In this document: positions 6,925 to 25,564 of the stretch, one piece after another
How the letters are laid out: every line of letters begins with the position of its first letter
Position numbering within the stretch: the first letter of the stretch is position 1
From: Blautia sp. MSJ-9
GTDB lineage: Bacteria; Bacillota; Clostridia; Lachnospirales; Lachnospiraceae
Length of the DNA stretch: 39,287 nt
NCBI RefSeq assembly: GCF_018919065.1
Contig: NZ_JAHLQG010000002.1
Coordinates: forward strand, 1 to 39,287
Direction: 5' to 3'
Translations under genes and position numbers: made by a program
Notes under the pieces: model-generated
Told to the model about the DNA's origin: nothing
Databases searched by the model: none
What the model saw: only the letters and a program-made list of their open reading frames with translations

Positions 6925-6990
6925 GCAACTGGCTGCCATTTCAGGCCCTATAGCTTTGCGTCACAGTCTTTCGGCTGCTTTGCCCTATTT
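6925..6990 (-). promoter_or_regulatory. Class I cyclic di-GMP riboswitch (GEMM-I)
   Basis: On the lower strand the RNA shows the conserved GEMM-I blocks in order: GGGCAAA, a GAAA tetraloop hairpin, GACGCAAAGC, GGGCCT and then GGCAGCCAGTTGC. The Vibrio Vc2 aptamer has the same run of elements (GGGCAAA...GAAA...GACGCAAAGC...GGCCT). The aptamer starts about 7 bases after the predicted transcription start and is followed directly by a terminator hairpin. It controls the dual-SBP hybrid kinase. A diguanylate cyclase lies in the operon just upstream, so signal maker and signal reader are neighbours. Confidence 0.88.
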
Positions 6991-7004
6991 CTTCTTTTGA
7001 TTTG

Positions 7005-11631: not shown

Positions 11632-11662
11632 ATTATAGCCCCCCCCCCGCAAATTGTGTCAA
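11632..11662 (-). promoter_or_regulatory. Promoter with a G10 tract in the spacer (phase-variable candidate)
   Basis: Reading leftward: perfect -35 TTGACA (11657-11662), a 19-bp spacer that includes ten consecutive G (C on the top strand, 11639-11648), and perfect -10 TATAAT (11632-11637). A spacer of 17 bp is optimal, so eight G would give the strongest promoter and ten G a weaker one. Homopolymeric tracts placed this way are known phase-variation switches through slipped-strand mispairing. It drives the cyclase-kinase operon. Confidence 0.8.
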
Positions 11663-11703: not shown

Positions 11704-11740
11704 AAAAACTCTTCACCGAATTGATCAGTGAAGAGTTTTT
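11704..11740 (-). terminator. Intrinsic terminator of the lipoprotein-kinase operon
   Basis: A 13-bp perfect stem, AAAAACTCTTCAC with GTGAAGAGTTTTT, and an 11-base loop, two bases past the kinase stop. The T run on the lower strand is part of the stem. It separates this operon from the G10 promoter of the cyclase. Confidence 0.88.
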
Positions 11741-11742: not shown

Positions 11743-14379
11743 TCATTTACTCCGTCTGGCTATCTGCCCCCCGCTTGCAAATCCACGGAGGGTTTTCTCC
11801 AGCACCGCAATATCCAGCGGCTTCGCAATATGTGCATCCATACCAGCACCCATACAGTGCTGCACATCTTCTGAAAATGCATTGGCTGTCATGGCAATGA
11901 TCGGGATTGTCTTTCCTATTGGATTGTTTCCGCTTCTGATGGCTCTGGTTGCTTCCAGGCCATTCATCTTCGGCATCTGCACGTCCATAAGGACTGCATC
12001 ATACTCTCCCGGTTTTACATTTTTAAACGCTTCTACGATTGCTTCTCCATCCGGGTAGATTGTACAGGAAGCGCCATACATCTCCAGAATCTCATTCAGG
12101 ATTTCTGCATTCAATTCATTATCCTCTGCACAAAGGAAATGCATACCATTCAAGATAGAAGTATTCTCTGTTTCTGAAACAGAATCCGTGATCGTTCTGA
12201 ACATTGCTGTCTCCAAATTGGACGCAAAGAACGGACGGGCAATAATTCCATCCACACCACTTTTCAGGATGCTTTCTTCTGCTTCATCCTGCATATAGTC
12301 CACACAAAAGATCAATACTGCATTCCCGGACATGCTTTTCAATAATCCAACGGTTTCTGACAAAGTCATATTTTTAATGCAGCCCGACAGCAGAATCACA
12401 TCTGCCTCTTCCTGAGTCAGCCATCCAGTTGCCTCTTCCTCCGTAGATACACAGGAAAACTCTACCGGTGCCTCACTGAAAGAAGCCTTCATGTTTTTCT
12501 TTAACCTGTCTTCACTGGAAATCAGCAAAATTCGTTTTGCACCAAGCGGATAAGTTCTTTCCTTGTTGATTGGAAGAGTTAAGATGACTTCAAAACGGCT
12601 TCCACGTCCGATTTCACTGTCCACATGGATTTCTCCACCCATAAGATCCACAATATTCTTTGTGATTGCCATTCCAAGTCCGGTTCCCTGTACTTTGTTG
12701 GTCACAGAATTTTCTGCTCTTGTAAATGGCTCAAATATATGTCCCACAAACTCCGGTGCCATTCCATATCCGTTATCAGTTACCGTAATGATAAACTTTG
12801 CATGATCCTTTTTATTGCAACGCACCTCAGTGAGATCAAACGTAATATCGCCGCCATTTGGTGTATATTTTACCGCATTGGATAACAGGTTCAGTGCAAT
12901 CTGCCGCAATCGGACACCATCACAAATCAGATATTCATGTACCACCTCATTCACGCGAATGTGGAAGTTCTGATGATGCTCATTTGTCTGGGCACGAATC
13001 ATGCTGTCAATCTGACCTACCTGTTCTGCAAGACTGACATTCTCCACATTCAGCTTCACCTCTTTTGATTCAATACGGCTCATATCCAAAATATCATTAA
13101 TCAGGCCCAGCAAATGTCTGCTGGAAAGCTGCACTTTATCAATATAAGTGTGCATTTTATCTGAAATTCCAGTTTCATGTTCCATCAGTCCGGTGATTCC
13201 TACGATTGCATTCATTGGAGTACGGATATCGTGAGACATATTTGAAAGGAAATCTGTCTTTGCCCTGCTTGCAGCTTCTGCCGCCTGCGTTGCACGCTCT
13301 GCTTTCTCAGCAGCAAGCTTCAAATCTTCGTTTATTTTCTCAAGGACTTCATTATTTTTCTTTTCGACCGCCAGTGCAAGTTTCTGCTGTTTTTTCATCA
13401 AAAGGAAAATCGTGATCACACTGACCAGCACAAGTACAACTGCAAAAATCATGACAAGCCGGACTGTCACATTGATCAGTTTCACTGTATTCATAGCTAC
13501 ATATTGTGACGGCACAAGAAAAATCAGGACCCATTCGGCATTATCCATCTTATACAGGGAATAATAAATTTCCTCATCATGCAGCAATGCATTGGAATAA
13601 GCAAGACCATTTTTATCCAGCTCAGCTCTTGTATCTTCAAAAGAACTTCCATGAAGATATTTTAAACTATCCAGAGAACTATATACATTGAACCCTTTCA
13701 GCAGATCCCCACTACTACTACTAAACAGCTTTAATCCATCTGAATCTGCGACATACACACTGTTGTTTCCATCATAGGCCTTGCAGTTAAAATACGGATT
13801 TAACTGTTCCATATCCTGTGATATGCCAAAGTACTGTATCTGGATATTTTCATCTTCAAATATCACTGGGTCAGAAAGTTTCTGAAGAAAAACCATTTTG
13901 GATTCATCATACGTCAATGAATTAGAAACGAAACTAACCCGTTCCGGTAAAGACGCAAGGTACTCCCTTTCTGGAAGCATCCCCTGTGTTCCGGATTCTG
14001 TATAATATTTTCCATTCTGGTCCACTGCAATAAAATCTATCTGTCTGCTGTCAAAATCCTCCAGATATGCCTGCTTTTCCATAAACTTCAGGAAGTCATC
14101 CTGATTCTCCGGATTCTGATCAAGCAGCTTCCTGCAGCTGTCGGCTGTTCTTCCCCACTGATTCTCCACTACGTCTTCCAGTCCGGAATAGAGCTGTGTG
14201 GTAACTTCCTTCATCTGATTGAGACGCTCTGCATAAAGTGTTTCGTCTATGTAATAATCGTAAAATTTCAGGAATCCGACAACACCTACAAGTGCAATGA
14301 CAAGCACAACCACAATACTGATCAGAGATTGGCTATATTCTTTTTTTCTGCTCTTTCTTCCACTTACTTTTTTTCCCAT
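11743..14379 (-). CDS. Hybrid sensor histidine kinase with Cache-like sensor and two receiver-type domains
   Basis: An 878-residue protein. There is a membrane span near 20-38, an extracytoplasmic Cache-like sensor (about 40-295), a second span (about 300-330), a coiled linker, HisKA with NMSHDIRTPMN (His383) and HATPase_c with DNGYGM and GTGLGM. A degenerate receiver (about 620-730) has no obvious phospho-acceptor, and a true receiver has Asp799 in MDVQMPKMNG. The start lies 2 bases after the stop of the lipoprotein gene, with GGGAG 5 bases upstream, so the pair is tightly co-translated. The lipoprotein probably delivers or reports the ligand to this kinase. There is no HPt or DNA-binding domain. 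Confidence 0.92.
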   Translation of the reverse strand: MGKKVSGRKSRKKEYSQSLISIVVVLVIALVGVVGFLKFYDYYIDETLYAERLNQMKEVTTQLYSGLEDVVENQWGRTADSCRKLLDQNPENQDDFLKFMEKQAYLEDFDSRQIDFIAVDQNGKYYTESGTQGMLPEREYLASLPERVSFVSNSLTYDESKMVFLQKLSDPVIFEDENIQIQYFGISQDMEQLNPYFNCKAYDGNNSVYVADSDGLKLFSSSSGDLLKGFNVYSSLDSLKYLHGSSFEDTRAELDKNGLAYSNALLHDEEIYYSLYKMDNAEWVLIFLVPSQYVAMNTVKLINVTVRLVMIFAVVLVLVSVITIFLLMKKQQKLALAVEKKNNEVLEKINEDLKLAAEKAERATQAAEAASRAKTDFLSNMSHDIRTPMNAIVGITGLMEHETGISDKMHTYIDKVQLSSRHLLGLINDILDMSRIESKEVKLNVENVSLAEQVGQIDSMIRAQTNEHHQNFHIRVNEVVHEYLICDGVRLRQIALNLLSNAVKYTPNGGDITFDLTEVRCNKKDHAKFIITVTDNGYGMAPEFVGHIFEPFTRAENSVTNKVQGTGLGMAITKNIVDLMGGEIHVDSEIGRGSRFEVILTLPINKERTYPLGAKRILLISSEDRLKKNMKASFSEAPVEFSCVSTEEEATGWLTQEEADVILLSGCIKNMTLSETVGLLKSMSGNAVLIFCVDYMQDEAEESILKSGVDGIIARPFFASNLETAMFRTITDSVSETENTSILNGMHFLCAEDNELNAEILNEILEMYGASCTIYPDGEAIVEAFKNVKPGEYDAVLMDVQMPKMNGLEATRAIRSGNNPIGKTIPIIAMTANAFSEDVQHCMGAGMDAHIAKPLDIAVLEKTLRGFASGGQIARRSK

Positions 14380-14381: not shown

Positions 14382-16193
14382 TTACTCCCAGACAATGTCT
14401 TTTGCAGACAATGTTTCAAACTGGCTGAGATACTCTTTCGCCGCATCCAGTCCTAATACACCACTGTCCTGAATATTACCTTCCTCCTGCACTTCATCGG
14501 TTGCACCACAGATGACTATGGTATAGGTAGTATCATCTTTAAATTCCATTCCGTCTTTTGCGGCAAGTACGTACGGGAATGCCACACTGTTTCCACTGCG
14601 TTCATATCCAGTCTGCATCAGCTCCTTGATCCGTTTTCCGGTAAGTGTAACCGTCTGGATATTTTTGCTCCATCCGGTCGGCAGGATGGAAACAATTTCC
14701 TGGTCAGAAACTCCCATAGGGAATAATGCCCCGCTCACACCCTCCTGGTTCATTTCAAAAGCATCTTTATCATACAGCCATGGATTCGTAGAAATCAGAG
14801 CTGCATCTGCATTCACAGCTTTTGCAAAGCAGATACCTACCAGTTTTGCACAGGTATCCATATCCAGGGTTTCTGTTACCGTTGTATAATTATCAACTTC
14901 GTTTTCTGTAATCAGGCTCTGATTATCATCAAATGCCTTAATAATATCATCCACACTTGCATTTCCCTTAATATACTCGATCATCGTCTCTCCCACCGGA
15001 ACAACAATGTTCTCCCAGCCAGAATAAACAAAGGAAGCTGTATGGCCGGAATTTAATTCATCTAATATGTCCGAATAGTAACTATCTTTCTCAATTTTTG
15101 CGTCTTTCAGTGGAATAATCCGTGAATTATTCTGTGATGGGTCCATGGATTCCATTCCCTCAACTGTGGAAAGGACTTCCATCACATGCATGGCATCTTC
15201 CAGCTTCTGTTCATTTCCCTTTTCACCAAGTTCCTTATTCAGTCCAACATAGCGGCTTACATTCAGGATAAATACATTCTGGTCTCCATCTTCGGAAAGA
15301 TACGGCATCAGACGGTATTCATCCGTTGCATCATTCTCTGCTGTAAGGTCATTACTGTTTCCCATCAAAAATAAGGTATTTCCCTTCAACACCTCAGCCT
15401 TGGTATCCGAATCACTGTCCGGCGTGCCATTGGCATTCAGCATTCCCAGATCCCGCCACTTTTCTATACTCTGTACTGCTTTCACCATCTCCGGTGTATC
15501 TGAAACATTGGCATCACCATTCAGAAAATCCTCCTGCCATGTCAGTCCGTCAATCGTACTTAAGAAACCGGTATCTGCAATGTTGCAGAGGAACTGAAAA
15601 CCAAATCCCGGATACTGCAGCTGGTCAAGGCACAAGGTATAACCAGCTTCCTCTACCTTTGGCGCCAGTTCTTCCAATTCTTTAAAGCTTGTAGGCAACT
15701 TCCATCCGTTCTTATCTAATAAAGTTTTATTGTAAGTAATTCCAAGTGCATTATATCCCATTGGCAGCATATAAATACCACCGTCCAGTGTCACTTCGCG
15801 CAGACGGGACTGTACATAATCGCCAGTAAAATCATAACCGGAAAGATCCAAGAAATCTGCTTTGTCATCATAACGGCCAGGGAGATAATACGTGGTAAAA
15901 TAAATGTCCGGCATCTCTCCTGTCTTCCGCATATCCAGCATATAAGTAGAAGTATTTTGTCCATTATATGGAATCACTTCCAGATTGATCTCCGGATATT
16001 TTTCTTTTACTATATCCACAAACGTTGACATATTTCTATAAGGAGCATTCATTGTAATGACCGGATGGTCACTGGAATTATCTGCTGATTTGCTGTCTGT
16101 GTTTTTCTCGTCTCCACTGAAACCACAACCGCTAAGCAATAAAGCTGTACAGGTAACAGCCAGTACTGCTGCAAGTATTTTCCCCTTTCGCAT
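14382..16193 (-). CDS. Lipoprotein: extracellular solute-binding domain joined to a 5'-nucleotidase C-terminal-like domain
   Basis: About 603 residues. The signal peptide ends in the lipobox LLLSGC (Cys23). Residues about 45-420 look like a family-1 ABC-type solute-binding protein (MPDIYFTTYY, MGYNALGITYNK, GNTLFLMGN). The C-terminal third has the pattern of the 5'-nucleotidase C-terminal substrate-binding domain: ADAALISTNP, then SILPTGWSKNIQTVTLTGKR and PYVLAAKDG. No ABC permease or ATPase is nearby, so the protein is more likely a ligand-sensing partner of the kinase that follows 2 bases later than a transporter component. I chose the ATG at 16191-16193 because GGAAGG is 8 bases upstream; an ATG three codons earlier has almost no spacing. 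Its upstream DNA is an invertible-promoter candidate. Confidence 0.8.
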   Translation of the reverse strand: MRKGKILAAVLAVTCTALLLSGCGFSGDEKNTDSKSADNSSDHPVITMNAPYRNMSTFVDIVKEKYPEINLEVIPYNGQNTSTYMLDMRKTGEMPDIYFTTYYLPGRYDDKADFLDLSGYDFTGDYVQSRLREVTLDGGIYMLPMGYNALGITYNKTLLDKNGWKLPTSFKELEELAPKVEEAGYTLCLDQLQYPGFGFQFLCNIADTGFLSTIDGLTWQEDFLNGDANVSDTPEMVKAVQSIEKWRDLGMLNANGTPDSDSDTKAEVLKGNTLFLMGNSNDLTAENDATDEYRLMPYLSEDGDQNVFILNVSRYVGLNKELGEKGNEQKLEDAMHVMEVLSTVEGMESMDPSQNNSRIIPLKDAKIEKDSYYSDILDELNSGHTASFVYSGWENIVVPVGETMIEYIKGNASVDDIIKAFDDNQSLITENEVDNYTTVTETLDMDTCAKLVGICFAKAVNADAALISTNPWLYDKDAFEMNQEGVSGALFPMGVSDQEIVSILPTGWSKNIQTVTLTGKRIKELMQTGYERSGNSVAFPYVLAAKDGMEFKDDTTYTIVICGATDEVQEEGNIQDSGVLGLDAAKEYLSQFETLSAKDIVWE

Positions 16194-16257
16194 ATCTCTC
16201 ATTCCTTCCCTTTTTAATAATTTTCGTATGTGTTTATGCTCAAAATGTCTTTTAACA

Positions 16258-16505
16258 ACATAATATTTGTTCTGTTGTACTTGAGGTACTAAAATAAATT
16301 AAATTTTACTGTAACTGAAACATGAGATGTGTGATTATTTCAACTGAAAGGATTTTTACCTAAAATAGGGTAAAAAATCCCTACTATTTTATGTATAATA
16401 AAGAGAAGTCCTTGAAACTCGACTTTTTTCGGCATATAATTTATTTATATGTATGCTTAAACAATGGTCTTAAATTATTAAAGTACAACAGAACAAATAT
16501 TATGT
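16258..16505. mobile_element. Invertible DNA segment (25-bp inverted repeats around 198 bp)
   Basis: The 25 bases at 16258-16282 (ACATAATATTTG...GTACTT) are the perfect reverse complement of 16481-16505. The right repeat overlaps the last codon and stop of the adjacent tyrosine recombinase gene. The enclosed 198 bp contain no gene but do contain a strong rightward promoter (16412-16440) and a hairpin (16350-16380, GGATTTTTACC with GGGTAAAAAATCC, one bulge). This is the layout of an invertible promoter controlled by a neighbouring recombinase. The 16203-16257 leader holds nothing else visible. Confidence 0.85.
16412..16440 (+). promoter_or_regulatory. Promoter inside the invertible segment (points away from the operon here)
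   Basis: TTGAAA (16412-16417), a 17-bp spacer and perfect TATAAT (16435-16440), reading rightward. In this orientation it would transcribe antisense into the recombinase gene. Inversion would place it on the lower strand with the -10 at about 16323-16328, starting transcription roughly 120 bases before the lipoprotein gene. I found no equally good leftward promoter in the segment, so this assembly shows the OFF state for that operon. Confidence 0.8.
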
Positions 16506-17351
16506 GACAATCAGTCCCAGTCGCTCCATCTGTCTTGCATGAACCGCCCCACTCTCTGCAGTATAAATCCTTGTAGTAGTCAAATTTGTATGCCCCAGAA
16601 TATCCGCCAGTCTGGACAGATCTTTTTCAATAGAATAAAACGTCCTTGCAAACAAATGACGCAGATTATGCGGAAACACCTTCTTCTCAGAAACTCCGGC
16701 GCTCTCGCACAATTTTTTCATATCCCTCCAAATATTGCTCCGGTCAAGCGGCTTTCCCGTCCTTGTCGTAAACACTGCCCCCGCAGTCTTTTTTTGATTC
16801 CGGATATATTTTTTCAACACCTTTCTCAGCTGGTCCGGCAGAAACACAACTCTCCGCTTCCCTTTGTTCGCGATCTCAGCCCTTCCACTCTGTACAGCTT
16901 CCACCGTAATAAATTTCAGTTCCGATACCCGGATGCCAGTTGCACAAATCGTCTGGATTACCAGAGCCAGCCTTTCATTCTCTTTCGCCTGAGCAGCTTT
17001 CACCAGACGGATATACTCTTCCCGTGTAAGTTCCCTTTCTTCTTCCAAAAACAAAGACCGCTGGATTTTTAACGGCTTCACCGTCAGTTCCATCCACCCC
17101 ATAAACCGCAGATATCCGTTCACAGCTGCCAACATGGCATTTACCGAAGCAGGTGCATATCTAGCAATCAGCTCCTGTTTCCAATTTATCAATAGAGATT
17201 TGCTTATAACCCTGTCCTGCAAAAATTCCAACAGTGAATACAGGTCGTGAGCATATTTTTGTATTGTGGCATTGCTGCGTTCCTGTTCTTTCAAGTATAG
17301 CAAGTAATCCTGAATGTATAATTCATTAATAGCTGGCATTTCTGTCTGCAT
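16500..17351 (-). CDS. Tyrosine recombinase (probable invertase for the adjacent switch)
   Basis: A 283-residue integrase/XerCD-fold recombinase. It has an N-terminal SAM-like core-binding domain (about 10-90) and a catalytic domain with all expected residues: Arg141 (ATGIRVSEL), Lys163 (NKGKRR), His228 and Arg231 (HNLR), His254 (LGH) and nucleophile Tyr263 (RIYT). AGGAGG lies 7 bases before the ATG. Its 3' end runs into the right 25-bp inverted repeat; the repeat preserves the stop codon in either orientation. Such neighbouring recombinases usually invert their own local site. I infer it flips the 198-bp promoter segment. Confidence 0.92.
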   Translation of the reverse strand: MQTEMPAINELYIQDYLLYLKEQERSNATIQKYAHDLYSLLEFLQDRVISKSLLINWKQELIARYAPASVNAMLAAVNGYLRFMGWMELTVKPLKIQRSLFLEEERELTREEYIRLVKAAQAKENERLALVIQTICATGIRVSELKFITVEAVQSGRAEIANKGKRRVVFLPDQLRKVLKKYIRNQKKTAGAVFTTRTGKPLDRSNIWRDMKKLCESAGVSEKKVFPHNLRHLFARTFYSIEKDLSRLADILGHTNLTTTRIYTAESGAVHARQMERLGLIVT

Positions 17352-17504
17352 AATAGTTCCTCCTGATCAACACTAAAGTAACCATTATTCTACCAAAAAA
17401 TACAGTTATCTATGCATTCACTACAGTAAAGAACAGGTACCTGAAAATAACCCAGATGCCTGTTTATATCGGATATATTTGTTTATCACAGCCTCTCCGC
17501 GGAC

Positions 17505-17576
17505 AATAAAAAAGCCCCGGAGTCGTGACCTCCGGGGCTTACCCCTAGACAAGAGCTGTTTTGTATCATTTTGCCT
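17505..17576 (-). ncRNA. Small RNA A (antitoxin-RNA-like family)
   Basis: The lower strand has -35 TTGATA (17606-17611), a 17-bp spacer and -10 TATAAT (17583-17588). About 70 bases on is an 11-bp GC-rich stem (AAGCCCCGGAG, loop TCGTGAC, CTCCGGGGCTT; 17512-17540) followed by six T. Promoter, length and hairpin are shared with the RNAs at 22815, 32853 and 33345. No reading frame is seen inside. I found no matching toxin nearby, so this may be an orphan. Confidence 0.6.
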
Positions 17577-17582
17577 GCAAAC

Positions 17583-17611
17583 ATTATAACATACGCAATT
17601 ATTATTATCAA
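17583..17611 (-). promoter_or_regulatory. Promoter of small RNA A
   Basis: TTGATA-17-TATAAT on the lower strand, perfect spacing. The ATTATAACATAC context at the -10 is repeated at the other small-RNA loci. Confidence 0.65.
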
Positions 17612-17695
17612 TGATTTTATTACATATCTTCTACTCTCAAGTACGTTAGATTACTGTTCAGAATTTACTTAGATAACCACCGCAAATAGCAAAAA

Positions 17696-17725
17696 GGCTA
17701 TTCCCTATTGCCGTAGGGGATAGCC
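17696..17725 (-). terminator. Hairpin terminator
   Basis: A 12-bp stem, GGCTATTCCCTA with TAGGGGATAGCC (one G-T pair) and loop TTGCCG, followed on the lower strand by five T. It ends a leftward transcript from the 17.7-17.9 kb region. Confidence 0.75.
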
Positions 17726-17862
17726 CGTGTTGTTTGACTTGTAACTTTTGAAAGACAATTCTCCATTCTAATACCAACCAAGCTGGAGAATTGCCAATGA
17801 TGTATAATTACATACTCAGATTTAATCCATAATCTACTCCCAATAGTGAACGGCTGTTCCAT
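17698..17862 (-). CDS. Possible 54-residue small protein
   Basis: An ATG at 17860-17862 with AAGGA 10 bases upstream opens a 54-codon frame that ends inside the terminator stem (TAG at 17698-17700). A TATAAT lies about 30 bases upstream, without a clear -35. The frame also spans a 10-bp inverted repeat, CAATTCTCCA (17756-17765) with TGGAGAATTG (17784-17793). The product has no recognisable motif, and the region may be a structured RNA instead. Nothing is seen in 17863-18021. Confidence 0.25.
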   Translation of the reverse strand: MEQPFTIGSRLWIKSEYVIIHHWQFSSLVGIRMENCLSKVTSQTTRAIPYGNRE

Positions 17863-18021
17863 GTAACGGATTTCCTTTTTGTATTATACTTTACATTAGC
17901 ATAATAGCATAAAAATACCCGAAATTACAGATAAAAAATCTGCCACCTATACAGGGTAAAAATAACATTTTCTGGGTAAATCGCCTCCGCAGAGACAAAT
18001 TCTCCGCAACCTGTCCGCGGA

Positions 18022-18705
18022 TTACTCCATTTTACCAAGTCTCTGTAGTGGCTCTGTTCGAATTGTAGTGGCCCGCCTGAAGAATGTGAGATTTTTTACG
18101 TTACTCAATTCCTGGATATTTTCGTACAAACCTGTGCATACAAGATATACGGGGTAATTGGCTCTTAGCCATCTTCCATATTCAGCGACAAACCTTACCA
18201 TTTCATCTGTTTTTGCAATTTCATCAATACCAATCAAGATTTTTTTCTGCTTCTTTTGCGCTTCTTGAATCATCTCTTCAACTTCGATTCCAATATCAAA
18301 AAACTTATCGTCGCTATATCCGAAATCGCCACCGTTTTCTTTCTTTTTTGAAAATCCTTCTTTTGAAAGCATTGCTGCAATTTGCATTAAGATATTTCCG
18401 TCCGAATTAACGTCACAGTTAACATCACAAACAAGCCATCCATTCTTTTTCAGCTCATCTTCTACTTTTGCAAGAATAAATTTTTTCCCTAATTCCTCAA
18501 CACCAGTAATTTTGTATACTGACTCAGATGGTCTCTCATAGCTAAAATTATCAAGTATTTCCATTGTTTTTTCTATAAGTTTAATGATATACTCGTTATA
18601 CCTCTCTTCTGCTTCTCTACATCCTTGTTCATATCCCTCTTCAAATCCTTCCCTGTAAGCCGCCTCAAGCACTGATTCTCTATGTATTTCCATATATTTC
18701 TCCAT
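18022..18705 (-). CDS. Degenerate AAA-type ATPase fragment with Rpn-like N-terminus
   Basis: 227 residues. The first ~45 (REGFEEGYEQGCREAEERY) resemble the charged tail of Rpn/PD-(D/E)XK transposase-like proteins. From about 65 the sequence resembles the P-loop AAA family common in Lachnospiraceae: a Walker A-like GVEELGKK in which the usual Thr/Ser is Lys, NGWLVCDVN, Walker B ILIGIDEI (about 167-174), and VYLVCTGLYENI...FFRRA. The protein stops soon after, without the C-terminal half such ATPases normally have. I read it as a fused and truncated remnant, perhaps still expressed. GGAG lies 6 bases before the fifth codon (ATG at 18691-18693), which may be the real start. Confidence 0.5.
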   Translation of the reverse strand: MEKYMEIHRESVLEAAYREGFEEGYEQGCREAEERYNEYIIKLIEKTMEILDNFSYERPSESVYKITGVEELGKKFILAKVEDELKKNGWLVCDVNCDVNSDGNILMQIAAMLSKEGFSKKKENGGDFGYSDDKFFDIGIEVEEMIQEAQKKQKKILIGIDEIAKTDEMVRFVAEYGRWLRANYPVYLVCTGLYENIQELSNVKNLTFFRRATTIRTEPLQRLGKME

Positions 18706-18724
18706 TCATCTTCTAATCCAACTC

Positions 18725-18898
18725 TCAGTCCTGCCGTTCTCCCGTACAGGAGTGATCCCCCCTCGATAAGGTTTCAGATACTTGTGACCTTTCGGGAACT
18801 ATTGAAGCTTCACATGCCTCTCCGTATGCACTTGTTTTTGTATACGGATTTTTTCTCGGACGCAGCTTCATAATATCATATTTTTTGCGCACAATCAT
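18725..18898 (-). pseudogene. Truncated small DNA-binding/antitoxin-like protein
   Basis: From an ATG at 18896-18898 (GGAGG 4 bases upstream) the frame reads IVRKKYDIMKLRPRKNPYTK, which resembles the start of BrnA-type or related antitoxins (KKYD...RKNPY). It then runs into low-complexity sequence with no helix-turn-helix or ribbon-helix-helix part, overlapping a hairpin (CTCC TGTACG GGAG). It is probably a truncated antitoxin gene. The rest of 18899-19065 shows nothing that I recognise. Confidence 0.35.
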
Positions 18899-19065
18899 CT
18901 CACCTCCAAAACGGTTGTTCATATAATTTTGTTGCCTTTCTTGCAGATATGAATTAGTTGTCTCAAAACTTGCGACAATTGATTAACGTCACTATATATG
19001 AATTTTGACTTGAAAAATATCAATAAATGAATTATGCTAATAAAGTGTTAATACTTCAAGAGTTG

Positions 19066-19114
19066 TATGGGATTCAAAAAAGTGAATTCGAATTCACTTT
19101 TTTTGAATCCCATA
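19066..19114. repeat. 49-bp near-perfect palindrome
   Basis: TATGGGATTC-A6-GTGAATTC meets its reverse complement with one extra T and no loop. It lies 33 bp past the end of the 19147 gene. It could act as a terminator hairpin in either direction or as a protein-binding site. It holds an internal EcoRI-like GAATTC pair. Confidence 0.8.
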
Positions 19115-19146
19115 TATCATTCTAATCGAACACCTCAGATACCCTC

Positions 19147-19590
19147 TTATATATTACCCCATCCATTAATCATTTCGTAGCAACTATAGGCTGCACGTTG
19201 TATACTCTCAGACTCACCAAACCAAGGATCAGGCAACAATACTGATACTATCTTCTGGCGTAGCTCTTTCGCAATTGCTATTATATGCAGTTTCTCTTCT
19301 ATACCTTCTGTAGACTTCTGAACATTACGATCATTTTGCGCAAAAATCCCCATCGAATAGATAAGTACATCCAGGAGTGTAATGTTAATATGCATCTGTT
19401 GTTTGGAAAATTCAATGTAACCTTCATTTAATTTTTTCAACTGCCCCATCATCTGTTGCAGCTCATCAGCAACCATCTCCTGATATTCCCTATCAATTCT
19501 AGGTATTGGTTCGCTCTGGAAATATGACAATCTCATTGCTTGTAATTTGTACAGTATCTCTTTTTCGTCTACAGTTAAATTAATCTTCAT
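19147..19590 (-). CDS. Hypothetical protein, 147 residues
   Basis: Starts MKINLTVDEKEILYKLQ. I prefer the ATG at 19588-19590 with AGGG 8 bases upstream; an in-frame GTG three codons earlier has poor spacing. The composition is helical and partly coiled (EYQEMVADELQQMMGQLKKLNEGYIEF), with no membrane span, metal site or catalytic motif that I recognise. It is the third leftward gene after a tyrosine recombinase and a coiled-coil protein, from which it is separated by about 115 bp. Function unknown. Confidence 0.55.
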   Translation of the reverse strand: MKINLTVDEKEILYKLQAMRLSYFQSEPIPRIDREYQEMVADELQQMMGQLKKLNEGYIEFSKQQMHINITLLDVLIYSMGIFAQNDRNVQKSTEGIEEKLHIIAIAKELRQKIVSVLLPDPWFGESESIQRAAYSCYEMINGWGNI

Positions 19591-19704
19591 CGTTTTCACC
19601 CTAACTATGTCTAATCAAAAAATACCAATATATCAACCCTTTATGAGTATTGTAAACACATTAGCATCTGAAAGCAATAGACAAATAAATTGACACAAAA
19701 AAAG

Positions 19705-20457
19705 TTAACGCCTAACAGGTCTATATTCCTCTGGTACATATAGACTCTGCGTATGATACATAGTCATCTCCCATAATCCGCAGACATAATTTGCTTTAAA
19801 ACACCATCTATATAGGCCACATACTTCATGTTCCTTTCCAACATCATCTATGTCTGTCCATTTTTTATAAATTCCATTATCCTTTTTTAGCTGCACATAG
19901 AAAATACCAATAGATTTTAATATTCTCATGCGTAATTCTGCCCATATATCATCTGCAATCTGCTCATATGGCAAACTTGCATCATATGGGGTTTGTAATA
20001 TACTTCGCCATACATACGTGACACCGTTATCATGGTGCACCCTACACTGTACAGATGACAGTACAACATATCCGCTATGTTCCTTCTTGGGCACAAGTCC
20101 TCTTTGGGCGTTAGCCCTCTCTCTCGCAATACGCTTTAGGTTACCATTAAGATTTATCTGCCTTTTTAACAGTTCCTCTAAATAATTTTTTTCTTTAGTG
20201 ACCCTTTCCAGTTGCCGCTCAACATCATCTATTTTGTATTGCATTTCCTTCTCTAGGTTTTTGTATTTTTCTAGCTGCTCTCCACAATATTCAACATTTT
20301 CCTCCGCAGTTAGCTGCGCCTGTTCTGCAGTTTTGATCCTCTTCTGCATGTCTGCATATTCTGCTGCACTCAATCGTACCTCTGTCAATTCCGGATCTGA
20401 TGCACCTGCAGATGTTTCTACCAATATTCCGAGGCTTCCTTTTTTCATGTATTTCAT
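19705..20457 (-). CDS. Coiled-coil protein of unknown function
   Basis: 250 residues. Positions about 30-110 form a strong heptad-type coiled coil (ENVEYCGEQLEKYKNLEKEMQYKIDDVERQLERVTKEK). The C-terminal half (about 120-245) is a Trp/Tyr-rich globular domain with several Cys (HHDNGVTYVW, CGLYRWCFKANYVCGLW). AAGGAG lies 7 bases before the ATG. It follows the tyrosine recombinase by 11 bases, so it is probably co-transcribed and may be an accessory factor. I do not recognise the family. Confidence 0.6.
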   Translation of the reverse strand: MKYMKKGSLGILVETSAGASDPELTEVRLSAAEYADMQKRIKTAEQAQLTAEENVEYCGEQLEKYKNLEKEMQYKIDDVERQLERVTKEKNYLEELLKRQINLNGNLKRIARERANAQRGLVPKKEHSGYVVLSSVQCRVHHDNGVTYVWRSILQTPYDASLPYEQIADDIWAELRMRILKSIGIFYVQLKKDNGIYKKWTDIDDVGKEHEVCGLYRWCFKANYVCGLWEMTMYHTQSLYVPEEYRPVRR

Positions 20458-20468
20458 GTCATCACTCC

Positions 20469-21497
20469 TTACAAATTGCGGATATAATTAGATATCGCCG
20501 TATCCTCACGGTTGTGTCCCAATGCTATACTAATCACACCTATTGCTTTACGATCCAATTTTTTCCCTCTTTCATCGCCACGACATACATAAATTTCCGA
20601 TCGATATTTTCCGTCTGAACATTTGATCTTATTTTCAAAGCTCAATTCTTCCATCGGACGTGCATATTCTTTGTACAGATATGTTGCATAGTCAGACCGG
20701 TATCCATGCACGTCACAATTTGCACTCACATACTGCCAGACCAATTCATCCGATTTTGTATTTCGCATCCGATCTACAATCTTTTCCATATTCGGTCCGA
20801 CAATCGGGCTTATCCGCATCTTTCCACCCTTATCTGAACGATGCAAAACAAAATATTCTTTATCTGGAAACGTTTCTAAAGCATCTTTACAAGCTTTTAT
20901 CATAGGATAATCACCATACATCCTAGCATCTTTCAAAGAAGCTTCAACTTGTCTTCTGTCATATAGATCACTACCCTTTAGCTTTTCCAAAACATTACGT
21001 CGAAAGCCACAGCCTTTACAAAAATTAACCAGTTCCTCATTCTTCGCTTCTGAAAAATGCTTATCTCTTTCTTTCCGTCCACGGCTCCTCACAATGTCCT
21101 CTTTTTTCCTCCGCGGAGGCTGAAAACGCTGCGGATCATCCTTTTTAATTCCATACAGTTTATTTAGGGCTGCAGCCTCAGTCTGTATAGTCCAGGCAGA
21201 CTTTCCCTCATCAACACGAGTCTGCAACCACTCTGCCACATACTTTTGAGCCTTGTCCAGTTTTCTACATTCTGGATAATGATTTTTTACATACCTGAGA
21301 AAATACTTAATGTGTTTCCAGTACGTTTTATAGGTAGAAAATGAATATATCTTACCAGACACCTTATCTGTATCATGTTCCCGATCATATTTCTTATCTT
21401 CCGTCTTAGAATCACCAAAATGCTGCATTCTTTGCAAGCGGTCATAAGCCTGCTGATGCAGGTCTCTATTATCTGAATTTTTCTTTTTATGTCCCAT
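20469..21497 (-). CDS. Tyrosine recombinase/integrase
   Basis: About 342 residues. An N-terminal SAM-like DNA-binding domain (about 50-130, STYKTYWKHIKYFLRYVKNH) precedes a catalytic domain with Arg in GFRRNVLEKL, HGYRS (His-x-x-Arg), LGH and the C-terminal nucleophile in AISNYIRNL, only five residues from the end. It is divergent from the recombinase at 16500. The start is taken as the ATG at 21495-21497 with GGAG 10 bases upstream; a TTG two codons earlier is possible. It follows the large structured non-coding region and precedes two unknown genes. Its target site is not known; integration or plasmid dimer resolution are both possible. Confidence 0.82.
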   Translation of the reverse strand: MGHKKKNSDNRDLHQQAYDRLQRMQHFGDSKTEDKKYDREHDTDKVSGKIYSFSTYKTYWKHIKYFLRYVKNHYPECRKLDKAQKYVAEWLQTRVDEGKSAWTIQTEAAALNKLYGIKKDDPQRFQPPRRKKEDIVRSRGRKERDKHFSEAKNEELVNFCKGCGFRRNVLEKLKGSDLYDRRQVEASLKDARMYGDYPMIKACKDALETFPDKEYFVLHRSDKGGKMRISPIVGPNMEKIVDRMRNTKSDELVWQYVSANCDVHGYRSDYATYLYKEYARPMEELSFENKIKCSDGKYRSEIYVCRGDERGKKLDRKAIGVISIALGHNREDTAISNYIRNL

Positions 21498-21539
21498 ACA
21501 CAATAAGCTCCTTTCTCCCTTTTGTTTTTTGTTCTAATC

Positions 21540-22070
21540 TAACACTTCGTAAGCGGTTAAAACATAATGTCGCTTCGTACCCGTCGTCTTTTGACTGCCG
21601 ATACTAGGCAATACACACTCTTTTTTGATCCCTTCTTTCAGGGAGGTCTTATGCACGACCTCTTGCACTCTTTTTTTACACCTTATGCACGGTGAGCATT
21701 CAACTCTTTCTGTCTGTTTCCTACAGCCTGTTTTATTAGATCAATGATAGAGCCAGGACTCTAACTAATGTCGGATCATCACCCTCCGGTCTTTACAGCT
21801 CCCGGTGCATTCACATTATTAGTTACTAAACCACTTTCCCAGGTTTTTCATTTATGGGATACACGTTTTCTTTTGTCTGGATCGGTATCAGATACTACCA
21901 GAGATCTCAATTTTGTCCGTCAATTCGGTTGCTACCCAGCGTTCAAAAAGATTACTAACTGTCTTGCATGACTCCCTACTATCTCCATTCGCAAGGGCTA
22001 CTCGGTGCATTCGGGTCATCCATGGCTTGATTCCATTTCTTTGCATCTATGTTAACTTATAAATAAGATC
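21540..22070 (-). ncRNA. Candidate large structured non-coding RNA (~0.5 kb)
   Basis: About 530 bp without a credible gene but dense in hairpins. Two hairpins, 21643-21662 (GAGGTC/GACCTC) and 21679-21694 (CACC/GGTG), carry the same 8-base loop (GTGCATAA on the lower strand). Two distant segments, 21801-21812 and 22003-22012, share CGGTGCATTC, whose complement can pair with those loops. Other stems are TAGAG/CTCTA (21748-21763), AAACC/GGTTT (21828-21846) and CTTGC/GCAAG (21963-21995). On the lower strand the linkers between hairpins are A-rich, so that strand is the likelier RNA. Size and repeated loop-target pairs recall the ornate large RNAs (ROOL, GOLLD) of plasmids and phages. No promoter is convincing, and no family assignment is claimed. 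Confidence 0.4.
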
Positions 22071-22128
22071 ACCTATAATATGGAAAAATTTTAAGAACAT
22101 GAAAAAGATATCCGGTGAAATCCTATAG

Positions 22129-22172
22129 ATATCGGTTTACCCGTTCATTGGCATAAGCGGGTAAACCGATAT
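22129..22172. repeat. 15-bp perfect inverted repeat with 14-base loop
   Basis: ATATCGGTTTACCCG (22129-22143) and its exact complement (22158-22172). Neither strand has a T run after it, so it is not a typical terminator. It separates the structured non-coding region from the rightward zinc-ribbon gene and could be an operator or recombination site. Confidence 0.75.
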
Positions 22173-22257
22173 TTCCACAACTACATACATCCATCTTGTG
22201 GTATAATTTTTATAACTAATATAACTAAGATTAAAATTACAAAGGGAGGAAAAAGAC

Positions 22258-22554
22258 ATGGGAAAAATGTATCGTATCCATCCAACCTGCCCACATTGCG
22301 GAGAAGAGCACCTGTCATTGGTAATCCGACTGACGGATGAAGAGCAGGCAGAAATTGACGAATTTAGCAAAAGCCATAAAGATGCAAATTGGTGGGATAA
22401 AATTATGGATGGTCCTGGATTAATAGTCCAACGCCGTGTAATATGTGGATGTTGCAGACAAGAATTCTCGACGCATGCGGGGGTGTGGGAGGAGGATGCA
22501 CTTGATTTTGATGAGCCAAATTATATCCCAATTGGGAAATATCCCGTTTTTTAG
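22258..22554 (+). CDS. Small zinc-ribbon-type protein
   Basis: 98 residues with two Cys pairs, CPHCGEEH near the N-terminus (HPTCPHC) and CGCCRQEF near position 64-70, likely forming a zinc ribbon. The remainder is acidic. GGGAGG lies about 9 bases before the ATG. An extended -10, TGGTATAAT (about 22197-22205), is visible upstream. It is one of the few rightward genes in this part of the plasmid. Function unknown; binding of nucleic acid or a protein partner is plausible. Confidence 0.7.
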   Translation: MGKMYRIHPTCPHCGEEHLSLVIRLTDEEQAEIDEFSKSHKDANWWDKIMDGPGLIVQRRVICGCCRQEFSTHAGVWEEDALDFDEPNYIPIGKYPVF

Positions 22555-22635
22555 ACCTTAAGATAGATAGTAGGGAGAATACCTCTCACACTCTCCCACA
22601 AAAATTATAATATATTAGAATTGTTGCTGAATCTA

Positions 22636-22644
22636 TGATATACT
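22636..22644 (+). promoter_or_regulatory. Extended -10 promoter of the toxin-like peptide gene
   Basis: TGATATACT, an extended -10 without a good -35. Transcription would start near 22651, so the RNA would begin with GTTGC, which pairs with GCAAC at 22669-22673. A 5'-terminal hairpin of this kind just before the ribosome site is common in type I toxin mRNAs. Confidence 0.5.
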
Positions 22645-22690
22645 TATAACGTTGCTGCCCTCAATCTGGCAACAGAAAGGAGGGACGCTT

Positions 22691-22780
22691 ATGTTAGATA
22701 TATTTATTTCGTTCTTAGTTTCCATCGCGGCTGGTATAGCCTGCCACTATATCTGCAAATGGTTAGATGGAGATAATTAA
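22691..22780 (+). CDS. 29-residue hydrophobic peptide, type I toxin-like
   Basis: The peptide begins MLDIFISFLVSIAAGIAC and ends KWLDGDN: one membrane span followed by a short charged tail, the form of Fst/TxpA-type toxins that act at the membrane. AAAGGAGGG lies 7 bases before the ATG, a near-perfect site. The first 30 bases around the start (22687-22716) are repeated downstream at 22857-22884 with two substitutions and a 2-base deletion, on the far side of a hairpin. The second copy lies in a leftward small RNA, which can therefore base-pair with the toxin start region. Toxicity is inferred from architecture. Confidence 0.72.
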   Translation: MLDIFISFLVSIAAGIACHYICKWLDGDN

Positions 22781-22814
22781 CAGCAACTAGCCTCGATCGT
22801 ACATCGTAAAAGTA

Positions 22815-22889
22815 CAAAAAAGAAAGCCCCCAGTATTAGCGGTACCGGGGGCTTTCGCTTACGTTAGACATTTATTTCGTTCTTTGCCT
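22815..22889 (-). ncRNA. Antisense-type antitoxin RNA (small RNA B)
   Basis: A leftward RNA of about 75 bases. Positions 22857-22884 are complementary, in 28 bases with two mismatches and a 2-base bulge, to the translation start region of the 29-residue peptide mRNA. It ends in a 10-bp stem (GAAAGCCCCC/GGGGGCTTTC, 22822-22856) then a T-rich tract on the lower strand. Toxin and RNA converge on this hairpin and act through a direct repeat, the same geometry as the par locus of pAD1 (RNA I/RNA II). Pairing would block toxin translation. Confidence 0.7.
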
Positions 22890-22895
22890 ATTGGC

Positions 22896-22924
22896 ATTAT
22901 AACATATGTAATTTTTGTTTGCAA
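22896..22924 (-). promoter_or_regulatory. Promoter of the antitoxin RNA
   Basis: -35 TTGCAA (22919-22924), 17-bp spacer, -10 TATAAT (22896-22901) on the lower strand. It looks stronger than the toxin promoter, as expected when the RNA must be in excess. Confidence 0.7.
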
Positions 22925-22931
22925 TATTCAC

Positions 22932-23290
22932 TTAACTGTTATCTACTGACCATTCGATCCCATAAAGATCTTGCAGCTAATCATGAATGTCACGTGTACT
23001 CATACCACGTGCATACAAAGAGATCACCTTTTCTTCAATCCCGGAAATATTTCTCTGGTATTTAGGGATAAATTTGGGTTCAAACTCCCCATTACGCTCT
23101 CTGGATATGTCAATTTGAAATTCGCCATATTGACTTTTTAAGTTCTTTGTAGAATGTCCATTTCTTTTATTGTCTGTCTGTAGATTTCCCTTATGGTTTT
23201 TCTCGTAACCAAGGGTTGCATCCAGTTCTGCCTCCATCAACTCCTGCAGGATATTTTTGAAACTGTCTTTCAGAAGAGTGTATATTCCAA
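22932..23290 (-). pseudogene. IS256-family (mutator) transposase fragment
   Basis: The lower strand reads LKDSFKNILQELMEAELDATLGYEK then an arm ending in PKYQRNISGIEEKVISLYARGMSTRDIHD, a typical N-terminal stretch of IS256-family transposases. A TAG (22977-22979) replaces the expected Gln before LQDLYGIE, and the frame stops at 22932. The catalytic DDE part is absent. The upstream end merges, in another frame, with the last codons of the primase-like gene, so an insertion and deletion event bordered that gene. No intact terminal inverted repeats were seen. Confidence 0.85.
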
Positions 23291-25564
23291 TAGCCTTCCC
23301 AAAGCATCAAAATCATATTTGCGCTGATCAAAATTATTAAATTTGTTTGTTACTTTTTTTTGTTCTTGTATCCGATCTGCCTGATCCGCTGCAGCATCCG
23401 GATGTCTGTATTTCCATACAGACTGTAAGACATAGAAAAAAGGCTTTTCTGCACCCCGAATTGTTCCCTGATGCGTTATACGCTCACAGATAACCACAAT
23501 GTCTTTATAGGTAAGAGATTTAAAACACTGTTTAATGTCTGAAGTCGGAATCTGCTTTCTCTCAATCCAAAAATAATCTCGTTTTAGGCGGTCAACCTGC
23601 ATACAGACAGTCTTTACCATTCGGAGCACATCCGGATCCAAGCGTTTCCTATACTCATCAGTGCCCTCAATGACCTTAAATCGCATGTCCATATAGTTTT
23701 TCAAATAACGATCAATCCGAGCCTCACGCTGCTCCGACGTTTCTGTTTTTACATCTACAACCGGGTATGTACACTGTTTCTTTGATTTTCCCTTTCCTGA
23801 ATTTAGAAAAAGCTCCCATACTCCTGGAAGATATACATTGAACATACCAAAAAGATAAGCACACTCTTCCTTATAATATCCAAAAAATTTTTTTACTACA
23901 TTGGTTCGAAGATCTGCTAGACGATCAGGATATTGCATAACCTCTGGCATCTGCTGGTCAAGATATTCTTCTAAGTCAATACCAAAACCTGAAGATTCCC
24001 AATTACTCCACCTAAAAAGAGTAAGGAGCTCCTGTGCGATAGTATTATCAGAAGCGATCGTAGCTAGCCACGCATACCAATCAAGCTCCTCTCCCCCGTC
24101 CCCCCTTACCGAAGGAGTAGAGAGAAGAGCGCGAGAAGTACCCTCAAAAGAGGCACACACAGACCCAGTGGCAGAATTTGCACTTTCAGAAACCTGTCCA
24201 ACATTCTCCCGAACAGAATCGTAAGCAATAATCTCTGCTTTCTGTTTCTGATGATTCTGGCGCTGTGCTGCCTTAGAATACCGCATCAAGTTTTCTTCCT
24301 TAGCAATCGCGCAAATTGTCCTTCTGGATACACCTGTAGCCTCCGCAATTTCATCATACGTCAAATAGTCGGCCTGCATCAGCAGCTCGACAATCTTTTT
24401 CCGTGTCTCTTTTTTCTTGTCTCTAACCGCCTTTCTCTCAGCTGCGCGTTTTAACCCCTGCCCAATTCCAAGCGTCTTAATTTCATCGTCTGTAAGGGCC
24501 AACATATCAATTACATAGGAATTTGACAGCTTATAATATCCTTTGTGATCAATACCAACGCTCTGATCCGTCTCCTGGATAATATGATCCAGTTCTGCTT
24601 GTGGCAATGGATCCACAAAACGCATATTCATCTCCTGCAGACGCAACGCTGCATTAGTCGGATCAAGCTGTTTCAGTGTGGAGTATGCGATAAATAGCAG
24701 TTGTTCCCTGCAACTATCTGTACATTCCTCTCCGCGCATCTCCTGCAGCTTCTCCAGTTGCTCTAAACGTGTCGTCAAAAACGGTAAACGGTACTCCGTA
24801 AATGATACTACCGGTCTGGAAGCGATTTCCTTTTTCTTCTTTTCTTTCTCTTCTTTTACTTTTTTATACTCTTCTTCGGGTTTCCAATCCCAGAGATTAC
24901 AGCCTTGTACCAGTTCCGATAATTCATAGTACGTTCCGGATACACTGATAAGCCGGCAGTATTTCCCGGCTTTCACGTTATATGTACCTGGCAAGCGACA
25001 AACGCGCGAATCATCCAGAACTGCAGCATCCACCTCAATCATTGGGTCTCCGCACAAAGTTTCTTTGTATTTTTCAAAAATAGATTTTCGGACCTTTTTG
25101 AAAAATGCAATCATTGTTTCGGTTCTCCAAGTATTAGCAATCGACTTATTCAAAACATACTGCAGTCCAAACCCTCTTCCCGTATCGGTGATCATAGTCG
25201 GGATAGCAAGGGTTCCGGACGCATATGCTTCCTGCAGAATATCCATGGCTCTTTTTTTTGCAGTCTCAATAGTATCTGGATTATCGGATCTATGGCAATC
25301 TATGTCGATATATATGGATGTGTAATTGAAAATTCGTGAAGATTCTCGTTTGTATCCTTTGAATGTATTCACCGTTACGTAACAACTATCCAGGTCAGTT
25401 CCTGTAGCTGCCAGTTCTTCTATATCACAATAGCTCCTCTGCTCGGAGTCCTTTTCATTTTTTATCCGAAGGTAGATCATCTGTCCGCCTTTTTTGTCAT
25501 GATACAGAACTTGGAGAAATCTTCTTTTTTCTCTTTCCATTGCTTCTTTTTCATATGCTTTCAC
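23270..25564 (-). CDS. Plasmid primase-like replication protein
   Basis: About 764 residues. The N-terminal third looks like an archaeo-eukaryotic-type primase domain: SIYIDIDCH gives the Asp-x-Asp pair (about 87/89), followed by GRGFGLQY and SRVCRLPGTYN. Around 415-440 a helix-turn-helix is visible (YDEIAEATGVSRRTICAIAKEEN). The C-terminal region is basic and of unknown fold; no helicase motif is seen. I place the start at the GTG 25562-25564, preceded at 9 bases by AAAGGAGG; the open frame extends further, across DNA that looks like the origin. The gene lies directly beside the iterons and Rep, so it probably primes plasmid replication. Its last codons abut an IS256 remnant, so the natural C-terminus may have been altered. 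Confidence 0.65.
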   Translation of the reverse strand: MKAYEKEAMEREKRRFLQVLYHDKKGGQMIYLRIKNEKDSEQRSYCDIEELAATGTDLDSCYVTVNTFKGYKRESSRIFNYTSIYIDIDCHRSDNPDTIETAKKRAMDILQEAYASGTLAIPTMITDTGRGFGLQYVLNKSIANTWRTETMIAFFKKVRKSIFEKYKETLCGDPMIEVDAAVLDDSRVCRLPGTYNVKAGKYCRLISVSGTYYELSELVQGCNLWDWKPEEEYKKVKEEKEKKKKEIASRPVVSFTEYRLPFLTTRLEQLEKLQEMRGEECTDSCREQLLFIAYSTLKQLDPTNAALRLQEMNMRFVDPLPQAELDHIIQETDQSVGIDHKGYYKLSNSYVIDMLALTDDEIKTLGIGQGLKRAAERKAVRDKKKETRKKIVELLMQADYLTYDEIAEATGVSRRTICAIAKEENLMRYSKAAQRQNHQKQKAEIIAYDSVRENVGQVSESANSATGSVCASFEGTSRALLSTPSVRGDGGEELDWYAWLATIASDNTIAQELLTLFRWSNWESSGFGIDLEEYLDQQMPEVMQYPDRLADLRTNVVKKFFGYYKEECAYLFGMFNVYLPGVWELFLNSGKGKSKKQCTYPVVDVKTETSEQREARIDRYLKNYMDMRFKVIEGTDEYRKRLDPDVLRMVKTVCMQVDRLKRDYFWIERKQIPTSDIKQCFKSLTYKDIVVICERITHQGTIRGAEKPFFYVLQSVWKYRHPDAAADQADRIQEQKKVTNKFNNFDQRKYDFDALGRLLEYTLF

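What the first reader, a model, noticed from the sequence alone, without database searches (positions are those of the whole stretch)
16258..16505. Invertible promoter switch in front of a sensor lipoprotein-kinase operon, caught in the OFF state
Seen: 25-bp perfect inverted repeats (16258-16282, 16481-16505) bound 198 bp that hold a TTGAAA-17-TATAAT promoter pointing away from the operon. A complete tyrosine recombinase abuts the right repeat. Known: recombinases adjacent to such repeats invert promoters in gut bacteria (surface polysaccharides, fimbriae). Inference: inversion would place the promoter about 120 bases before the lipoprotein gene and turn on a ligand-sensing two-component pair. 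In the present orientation the promoter makes RNA antisense to the recombinase, which could stabilise the OFF state. A plasmid-borne switch that toggles a sensor rather than a surface structure is unusual.
Basis: partly seen in the sequence, partly recalled or inferred. Interest (0 to 1): 0.88.

Follow-up and report, generated by a model that had tools for sequence, protein, structure and literature searches.

The report
Flippable promoter guarding a sensor-kinase pair
On an apparently circular plasmid, perfect 25-base inverted repeats beside a recombinase gene bracket a predicted promoter that points away from a nutrient-sensor/kinase gene pair; flipping it would likely switch the sensor on, and comparison with relatives suggests that the present OFF orientation is likely held by antisense RNA against the recombinase.

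Summary
The site occurs four times in the 3.67-Mb assembly: twice here, twice at a paralogous recombinase-switch-sensor cassette. In 83 of 110 related recombinase ORFs a repeat pair lies near the gene's 3' end, and two pairs of relatives carry the bracketed segment in opposite orientations. Of 77 non-redundant loci, 52 promoters point at the recombinase (OFF), 10 away, 15 are unclear. Recombinase genes carry terminator-like hairpins on their antisense strand above a synonymous-codon null (28 of 77 versus 8.6), favouring a real antisense RNA; the window's own hairpin (16774-16787) is not exceptional alone. A terminator limits the predicted unit to the lipoprotein and first hybrid kinase. Three distant sensor-kinase copies have a c-di-GMP riboswitch in front instead. 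Phase-variable c-di-GMP-linked signalling is known in C. difficile (CmrRST, pdcB), and orientation-dependent recombinase expression for fimE, so this is a new variant of a known kind. Inversion and antisense RNA at this locus are untested.

The parts
16258..16282 (+). left inverted repeat (predicted recombination site)
   Evidence: 25-nt perfect repeat; site found at 4 places in the genome, 2 here and 2 at the paralogue
16481..16505 (-). right inverted repeat; overlaps the recombinase stop codon
16412..16440 (+). predicted sigma-A-type promoter TTGAAA-17-TATAAT inside the segment, now facing the recombinase (OFF)
   Evidence: the C27 paralogue has the same hexamers and spacing in the same orientation
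16350..16381 (.). A/T-rich hairpin inside the segment, between promoter and left repeat; possible weak insulator
   Evidence: about -12 kcal/mol on either strand; z -1.5 and -2.1; no good T run, so weak
16500..17351 (-). tyrosine recombinase, 283 aa, predicted to invert the segment
16774..16787 (+). terminator-like hairpin followed by a T run on the strand antisense to the recombinase; predicted 3' end of a roughly 345-nt antisense RNA
   Evidence: for this gene alone 32% of synonymous shuffles also give such a site
14382..16202 (-). solute-binding lipoprotein (SBP_bac_8/SBP_bac_1), predicted ligand sensor
   Evidence: likely start at the second ATG (16193), from the ribosome-binding-site-like AAGGA seen
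11743..14379 (-). hybrid sensor histidine kinase (HisKA, HATPase_c, receiver), predicted partner of the lipoprotein
   Evidence: starts 2 nt after the lipoprotein gene
11704..11740 (-). strong terminator-like hairpin ending the lipoprotein-kinase unit
   Evidence: -22.1 kcal/mol, z -5.9

Best explanation
This is a recombinase-linked segment, its predicted promoter now pointing away from the operon, that would likely invert to bring that promoter in front of a lipoprotein sensor and hybrid kinase pair. Shown from sequence: the repeats, the promoter match and its direction, the abutting recombinase whose stop codon sits in a repeat, the paralogous cassette in the same genome, and inverted segments in related cassettes. 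Inferred: the recombinase pairs the two repeats and flips the 198-bp segment; the ON transcript then reads the lipoprotein and first kinase and stops at the hairpin after the kinase; the lipoprotein presents a solute, perhaps a sugar, to the kinase. Inferred with comparative support: in the OFF state the same promoter makes an antisense RNA of about 345 nt that ends at a terminator inside the recombinase gene and lowers recombinase output, so OFF is long-lived; in the ON state that brake is gone, so ON tends to revert.
For: Repeats and promoter. Only 4 copies of the site in the genome at up to 3 mismatches, in two recombinase-linked pairs; 0 for the reversed control pattern. Paralogous cassette on C27 with the same order recombinase-switch-lipoprotein-kinase, also OFF. 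83 of 110 recombinase ORFs have an inverted-repeat pair of score 13 or more whose first arm starts between 60 nt before and 340 nt after the stop. Natural inversion: L149 versus L153 (same genome) align in the plus direction through the recombinase and through the downstream gene but in minus through the segment (80% over 199 nt); L040 versus L041 align plus on the left and minus over 123 nt of the segment. Orientation: 52 toward the recombinase, 10 away, 15 unclear of 77 non-redundant loci; strong promoters 31 to 5; dinucleotide shuffles 292 to 296. Antisense terminators: 28 of 77 versus 8.6 +/- 2.5 under synonymous-codon shuffling; strict criterion 18 versus 1.4, and 257 control genes 19 versus 13.8. 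In an alignment chosen for the window's hairpin, 3 of 6 stem pairs show double changes that keep the pair.
Against: No reads or RNA of this plasmid; inversion here is not observed. Promoter-like sites are not above chance in the region as a class. 27 of 110 recombinase ORFs had no repeat pair by this test, 7 of them with under 220 nt of downstream sequence. For at least two loci (L034, L131) the top-scoring repeat is not the usual site, so their OFF calls are doubtful. The window's own antisense hairpin is unremarkable alone: 32% of synonymous shuffles of its gene also have one (20% for the paralogue). With a laxer T-run rule the excess shrinks to 35 versus 22.4 (null maximum 34). Antisense terminators fade with stricter redundancy removal: at under 60% identity 8 of 35 versus 3.3 expected (null reached 8), at under 55% 4 of 20 versus 1.7. 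L034, L129, L125 and L130, near the window in the tree, lack the hairpin and were not in the alignment; one of its three double-changed pairs rests only on L166, which lacks the T run. OFF bias could come from selection against ON cells rather than from antisense control.
Confidence: 0.78

Rival explanations
1. Invertible promoter as above, but the OFF excess reflects selection (ON cells are costly or rare under the sampled conditions) and the antisense RNA plays no part.
For: The commonest downstream class in the family is large surface proteins (23 of 47 loci scanned), which can be costly (recalled). The antisense hairpin is missing from many relatives and is not exceptional for the window's gene alone.
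Against: Antisense terminators inside recombinase genes exceed the synonymous null and show double changes that keep pairing; 21 of 52 OFF loci, 0 of 10 ON loci and 7 of 15 unclear loci have one (Fisher p 0.012 for OFF against ON, post hoc).
Confidence: 0.35
2. The recombinase and repeats are a decayed or locked switch on this plasmid; the promoter stays OFF or fires only against the recombinase.
For: Only OFF is seen here and in the paralogue.
Against: The recombinase frame is complete with the expected motifs and the repeats are perfect over 25 nt; a C27 recombinase 83% identical keeps the same architecture.
Confidence: 0.1
3. The repeats are recombination sites for integration, excision or plasmid dimer resolution, not for promoter inversion.
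For: The recombinase is Xer-like by profile, though below the cut-offs, and its best sequence matches among solved structures are XerC-like, XerA and XerD proteins.
Against: Sites are inverted, not direct; each pair lies between a recombinase and a gene pair; no other copy exists in the genome at up to 3 mismatches; relatives show the segment inverted.
Confidence: 0.05

Closest known systems
C. difficile cmr switch / CmrRST
   Same: Invertible promoter in front of a sensor-kinase signalling operon tied to c-di-GMP through a riboswitch (PMC8844915, PMC6837544: passages seen).
   Different: There the recombinase RecV acts on several switches (passage) and riboswitch and switch precede the same operon; here a recombinase abuts the switch, the target is a solute-binding lipoprotein plus hybrid kinase on a plasmid, and riboswitch and switch front different copies.
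C. difficile pdcB switch
   Same: Invertible promoter controlling a c-di-GMP-related gene (PMC9286219: abstract and outline seen).
   Different: The target is a phosphodiesterase, not a ligand sensor.
Inverton group 139 / invertase group 35 of gut Clostridia
   Same: 33 invertons, 32 from class Clostridia, nearly all with a nearby tyrosine-type recombinase; read-based orientation shifts reported for two of them (PMC11892184: passages and section 8 seen).
   Different: I could not compare sequences, so identity with this family is a lead only. The passages seen do not name the genes that group 139 controls.
E. coli fimS / fimE
   Same: Inverting fimS connects or disconnects fimE from a terminator and affects FimE production (PMC9993118: passage seen). 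That fimE lies beside the switch is recalled.
   Different: There a Rho-dependent terminator in the invertible segment acts on the fimE transcript; here a predicted intrinsic terminator lies inside the recombinase gene on the antisense strand.

Membership tests
Inverton (recombinase-mediated invertible promoter) | inverted repeats of 10-40 nt flanking the segment (definition as in PMC11892184) | tested here: met
Inverton (recombinase-mediated invertible promoter) | promoter in the segment able to serve the neighbouring gene when flipped | tested here: met
   by sequence only; activity untested
Inverton (recombinase-mediated invertible promoter) | both orientations observed | tested here: inconclusive
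   not at this locus; yes for relatives L149/L153 and L040/L041
Tyrosine recombinase | integrase domain and catalytic motifs | tested here: met
NCBIfam tyrosine-type DNA invertase (PRK09870/PRK09871) | score above the curated cut-off | tested here: not met
   31.8 and 34.2 bits against 221 and 222
XerA/XerC/XerD equivalogs | score above the curated cut-off | tested here: not met
   142.2, 117.8 and 115.2 bits against 220, 335.15 and 329.6
CmrRST-type phase-variable signalling | switch and c-di-GMP riboswitch upstream of the same operon | tested here: not met
   no riboswitch hit upstream of this lipoprotein gene or of the C27 one
fimE-like orientation control of the recombinase | recombinase output depends on switch orientation | not testable with these tools
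   only comparative hints

The most novel reading that the evidence does not exclude
A self-locking DNA switch: in the OFF orientation the promoter transcribes a discrete antisense RNA, ended by a terminator built into the recombinase's own coding sequence, that silences the recombinase; flipping ON removes the brake and invites return. Cassettes of this design have been placed in front of surface proteins and, here, in front of a plasmid-borne sensor-kinase pair whose distant copies are ruled by a c-di-GMP riboswitch instead.
Probability: 0.42. Interest if true: 0.82.

Novelty: new variant of a known kind. Interest (0 to 1): 0.66.

Why it matters
It links three ways of setting a sensor's expression (DNA inversion, c-di-GMP riboswitch, plasmid carriage) in one module, and it gives a testable explanation of why such switches are more often found OFF: antisense control of the recombinase by the very promoter that it flips. 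The antisense terminators inside recombinase genes, if they act as predicted, would be a compact design for hysteresis that could be recognised from sequence alone.

Tried and rejected
Exact search for the promoter core in IMG/VR found nothing, and one relative of the recombinase there was found, so no alternative orientation of this plasmid was available. Near-match search of 9.6 kb of the window (14382-24000) in the plasmid records: none. The hairpin inside the segment was considered as a terminator that insulates the operon; it lacks a T run and is weak. Dinucleotide shuffles (28 versus 6.4) were judged too weak a null for hairpins in coding sequence and were replaced by synonymous-codon shuffles plus control genes. 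A hand-placed alignment of the clade B hairpin used wrong coordinates and is discarded; the pattern search made with it found the clade B hairpin in 11 of 185 loci, some of them overlapping fetches of one place. A 12-base inverted pair upstream of the L124 lipoprotein gene was checked and set aside: one arm lies in an upstream reading frame and the likely promoter lies outside the pair. No structure predictions or fold searches were run. The downstream-gene labels used in the tree were mine; each label needs 7 changes on it.

Papers: searches that returned none; other searches. For what was seen of each paper, see Closest known systems. PMC8777976 was seen as passages; PMC2845655 only as a reference-list line; PMC5386303 and PMC7446863 in search listings only.

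Changed after re-checking: 'mostly surface proteins' became 23 of 47; the weak points of the antisense evidence (the window's own gene alone, the laxer rule, the choice of rows) were added, and the odds of the novel case went from 0.45 to 0.42 for that reason.

Full report
Observation. Thirty dinucleotide shuffles of the window gave perfect inverted repeats of 11-17 nt, against 25. The recombinase's stop codon lies inside the right repeat, and turning the element round leaves the recombinase frame and both repeats unchanged.

Replicon. The window is a complete contig of a 57-contig, 3.67-Mb assembly. Its first and last 119 bases are identical, so it is most simply a circular plasmid of about 39.2 kb; ParA and a resolvase fit. 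A 9.6-kb part of it (14382-24000) has no near match in 72,556 plasmid records (the tool may leave out the window's own record).

What is controlled. The lipoprotein gene (SBP_bac_8) and the first hybrid kinase gene lie 2 nt apart. A strong hairpin follows the kinase (11704-11740, z -5.9), and the next gene, a diguanylate cyclase with an intact GGDEF motif, has its own TTGACA-19-TATAAT promoter match whose spacer holds a run of ten G (11639-11648). Further kinase genes follow; the one at 3981-6854 has a c-di-GMP-I riboswitch in front (6921-6994, 61 bits). The switch therefore most likely sets only the lipoprotein-kinase pair.

A second copy. The same genome has a paralogous cassette on contig C27: recombinase (83% identical), 22-nt repeats, a TTGAAA-17-TATAAT promoter match also pointing at the recombinase, then lipoprotein and kinase. 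The C27 cluster goes on with a riboswitch-led kinase, a riboswitch-led GGDEF gene and more kinases; C27 has no overlapping ends. A third lipoprotein-kinase pair on C28 and its counterparts in two other genomes (G037, G058; 64 genomes searched) carry a c-di-GMP-I riboswitch just upstream of the lipoprotein gene, with no recombinase homologue in the fetched 13-16 kb and no perfect 12-base inverted pair (80-650 nt apart) in the 1.5 kb upstream; a more distant one (G054) has neither riboswitch hit nor recombinase, and its one such pair does not bracket the promoter. The front end of this sensor module thus differs between copies: riboswitch, invertible promoter or neither.

The site. At up to 3 mismatches the 22-nt core occurs four times in the genome, two per cassette, and the reversed control pattern none. 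The two cassettes' sites differ by one central base; if that base lies in the crossover region it would hinder recombination between the two replicons (inference).

The family. From 106 sequence sources (window, 60 loci) a protein search gave 110 recombinase ORFs; 83 have a repeat pair of score 13 or more whose first arm starts between 60 nt before and 340 nt after the stop. Of the 27 without, 7 have under 220 nt of sequence downstream; others include gene fragments and second recombinases. Many of the repeats have the form ACATAAT-N-ATTATGT(TGTA) or ACAGAAT-N-ATTCTGT; some do not. Two pairs show inversion: L149/L153 (two cassettes of one genome, called ON and OFF), where both flanks run the same way and the segment runs the opposite way, and L040/L041 (both 'unclear' in the promoter count), where the left flank runs the same way and the segment the opposite way; L041 has only 96 nt of right flank. 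Of 41 segment alignments, 35 are in the same direction and 6 opposite: these two, a 39-nt one (L057/L073), and three pairs (L058/L059, L131/L132, L137/L138) that align in both directions, so internal symmetry may explain them.

Downstream genes. I scanned 48 downstream proteins from 47 loci, chosen partly for size or oddity: 23 loci have surface-type domains over the cut-off (SLH, LRR_5, SpaA/DUF7601, VWA, Flg_new, CHB_HEX_C_1/Cu_amine_oxidN1), 7 have signalling or regulatory domains (GGDEF-EAL in L033, GGDEF with a PilZ glycosyltransferase beside it in L130, HD in L053, BTAD in L048, Rrf2 in L149, TetR in L044, PP2C in L161), and 17 have other domains or none. Among the 106 sources only the window and its paralogue have the lipoprotein-kinase pair beside this recombinase.

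OFF bias. After removing recombinases 90% or more identical, 77 loci remain: 52 have the better promoter toward the recombinase, 10 away, 15 within 2 bits. With strong promoters only (11 bits or more), 31 to 5. At under 70% identity (58 loci) 37 to 10, 11 unclear. Shuffled segments give 292 to 296. Binomial p is 5.7e-8, taking loci as independent. At least two OFF calls (L034, L131) rest on a repeat that is not the usual site.

Antisense terminators. On the strand antisense to the recombinase, within 450 nt of its stop, 28 of 77 genes have a hairpin followed by at least 6 T in 8, against 8.6 +/- 2.5 (maximum 15 of 100 rounds) when synonymous codons are shuffled; the sense strand has 5 against 3.0. 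A stricter hairpin gives 18 against 1.4, a laxer T run 35 against 22.4 (maximum 34), and 257 other genes of the same loci 19 against 13.8. They end 130-311 nt inside the gene, 22 of 28 at 208-214 or 287-299. In 12 rows chosen around the window's hairpin (10 distinct), 3 of 6 stem pairs have double changes that keep pairing, covariation score 0.274 against 0.063 in shuffles, 0 of 500 as high; two of the three do not rest on L166 alone, and in frame the changes between window, L040 and L021 leave TAGAVF unchanged. Against it: the window's gene alone gives such a site in 32% of synonymous shuffles; four relatives near the window lack it and were not in that alignment; and the signal fades with stricter redundancy removal (18 of 58 versus 5.5 at 70%, 8 of 35 versus 3.3 at 60%, 4 of 20 versus 1.7 at 55%). 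None of the 10 ON loci has one, against 21 of 52 OFF and 7 of 15 unclear loci (p 0.012 for OFF against ON, post hoc, not corrected for kinship).

Mechanism. The simplest reading is an invertible promoter whose OFF state also represses its own recombinase. The switch part is well supported; the antisense part is a comparative inference.

Known systems. CmrRST and pdcB in C. difficile show that phase-variable signalling linked to c-di-GMP exists. fimS/fimE shows that orientation can affect recombinase production through a terminator. Inverton group 139 is a possible but untested home for this family. Two searches with terms for this combination found no paper, and one for recombinase, antisense and orientation bias listed none whose title or abstract start describes an antisense-terminated recombinase (10 of 19 listed); the library is partial.

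Noticed in passing
window 11632-11662 (-): Run of ten G inside the 19-nt spacer of the diguanylate cyclase gene's promoter match: a possible second, slippage-type phase-variable element in the same cluster.
   Followed up: partly
window 6921-6994 (-): c-di-GMP-I riboswitch followed by a terminator-like hairpin and T run (seen by eye) in front of the hybrid kinase gene 3981-6854; 11 such riboswitches in the genome.
   Followed up: partly
L121 7929-8004, L122 8815-8890, L123 9594-9669: Paralogous lipoprotein-kinase pairs are preceded by a c-di-GMP-I riboswitch where the window has the invertible promoter.
   Followed up: yes
L131, L134, L061, L137 just after the repeats: The first gene after the switch is a second tyrosine recombinase of about 270 aa, followed by a surface-protein-like gene: a two-recombinase arrangement.
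   Followed up: no
window 16268 and L019 9364: The recombination sites of the plasmid and C27 cassettes differ by one central base, which may keep the two replicons from recombining (inference).
   Followed up: no
window 34569-35765 (-): HD-domain protein (HD_5) on the same plasmid as the diguanylate cyclase; its best NCBIfam model is a c-di-GMP phosphodiesterase family, far below the cut-off.
   Followed up: no
L166 1-760: IMG/VR contig with part of a recombinase 75% identical to the window's and an inverted repeat 3' of it (seen by eye); its downstream genes were not searched.
   Followed up: partly
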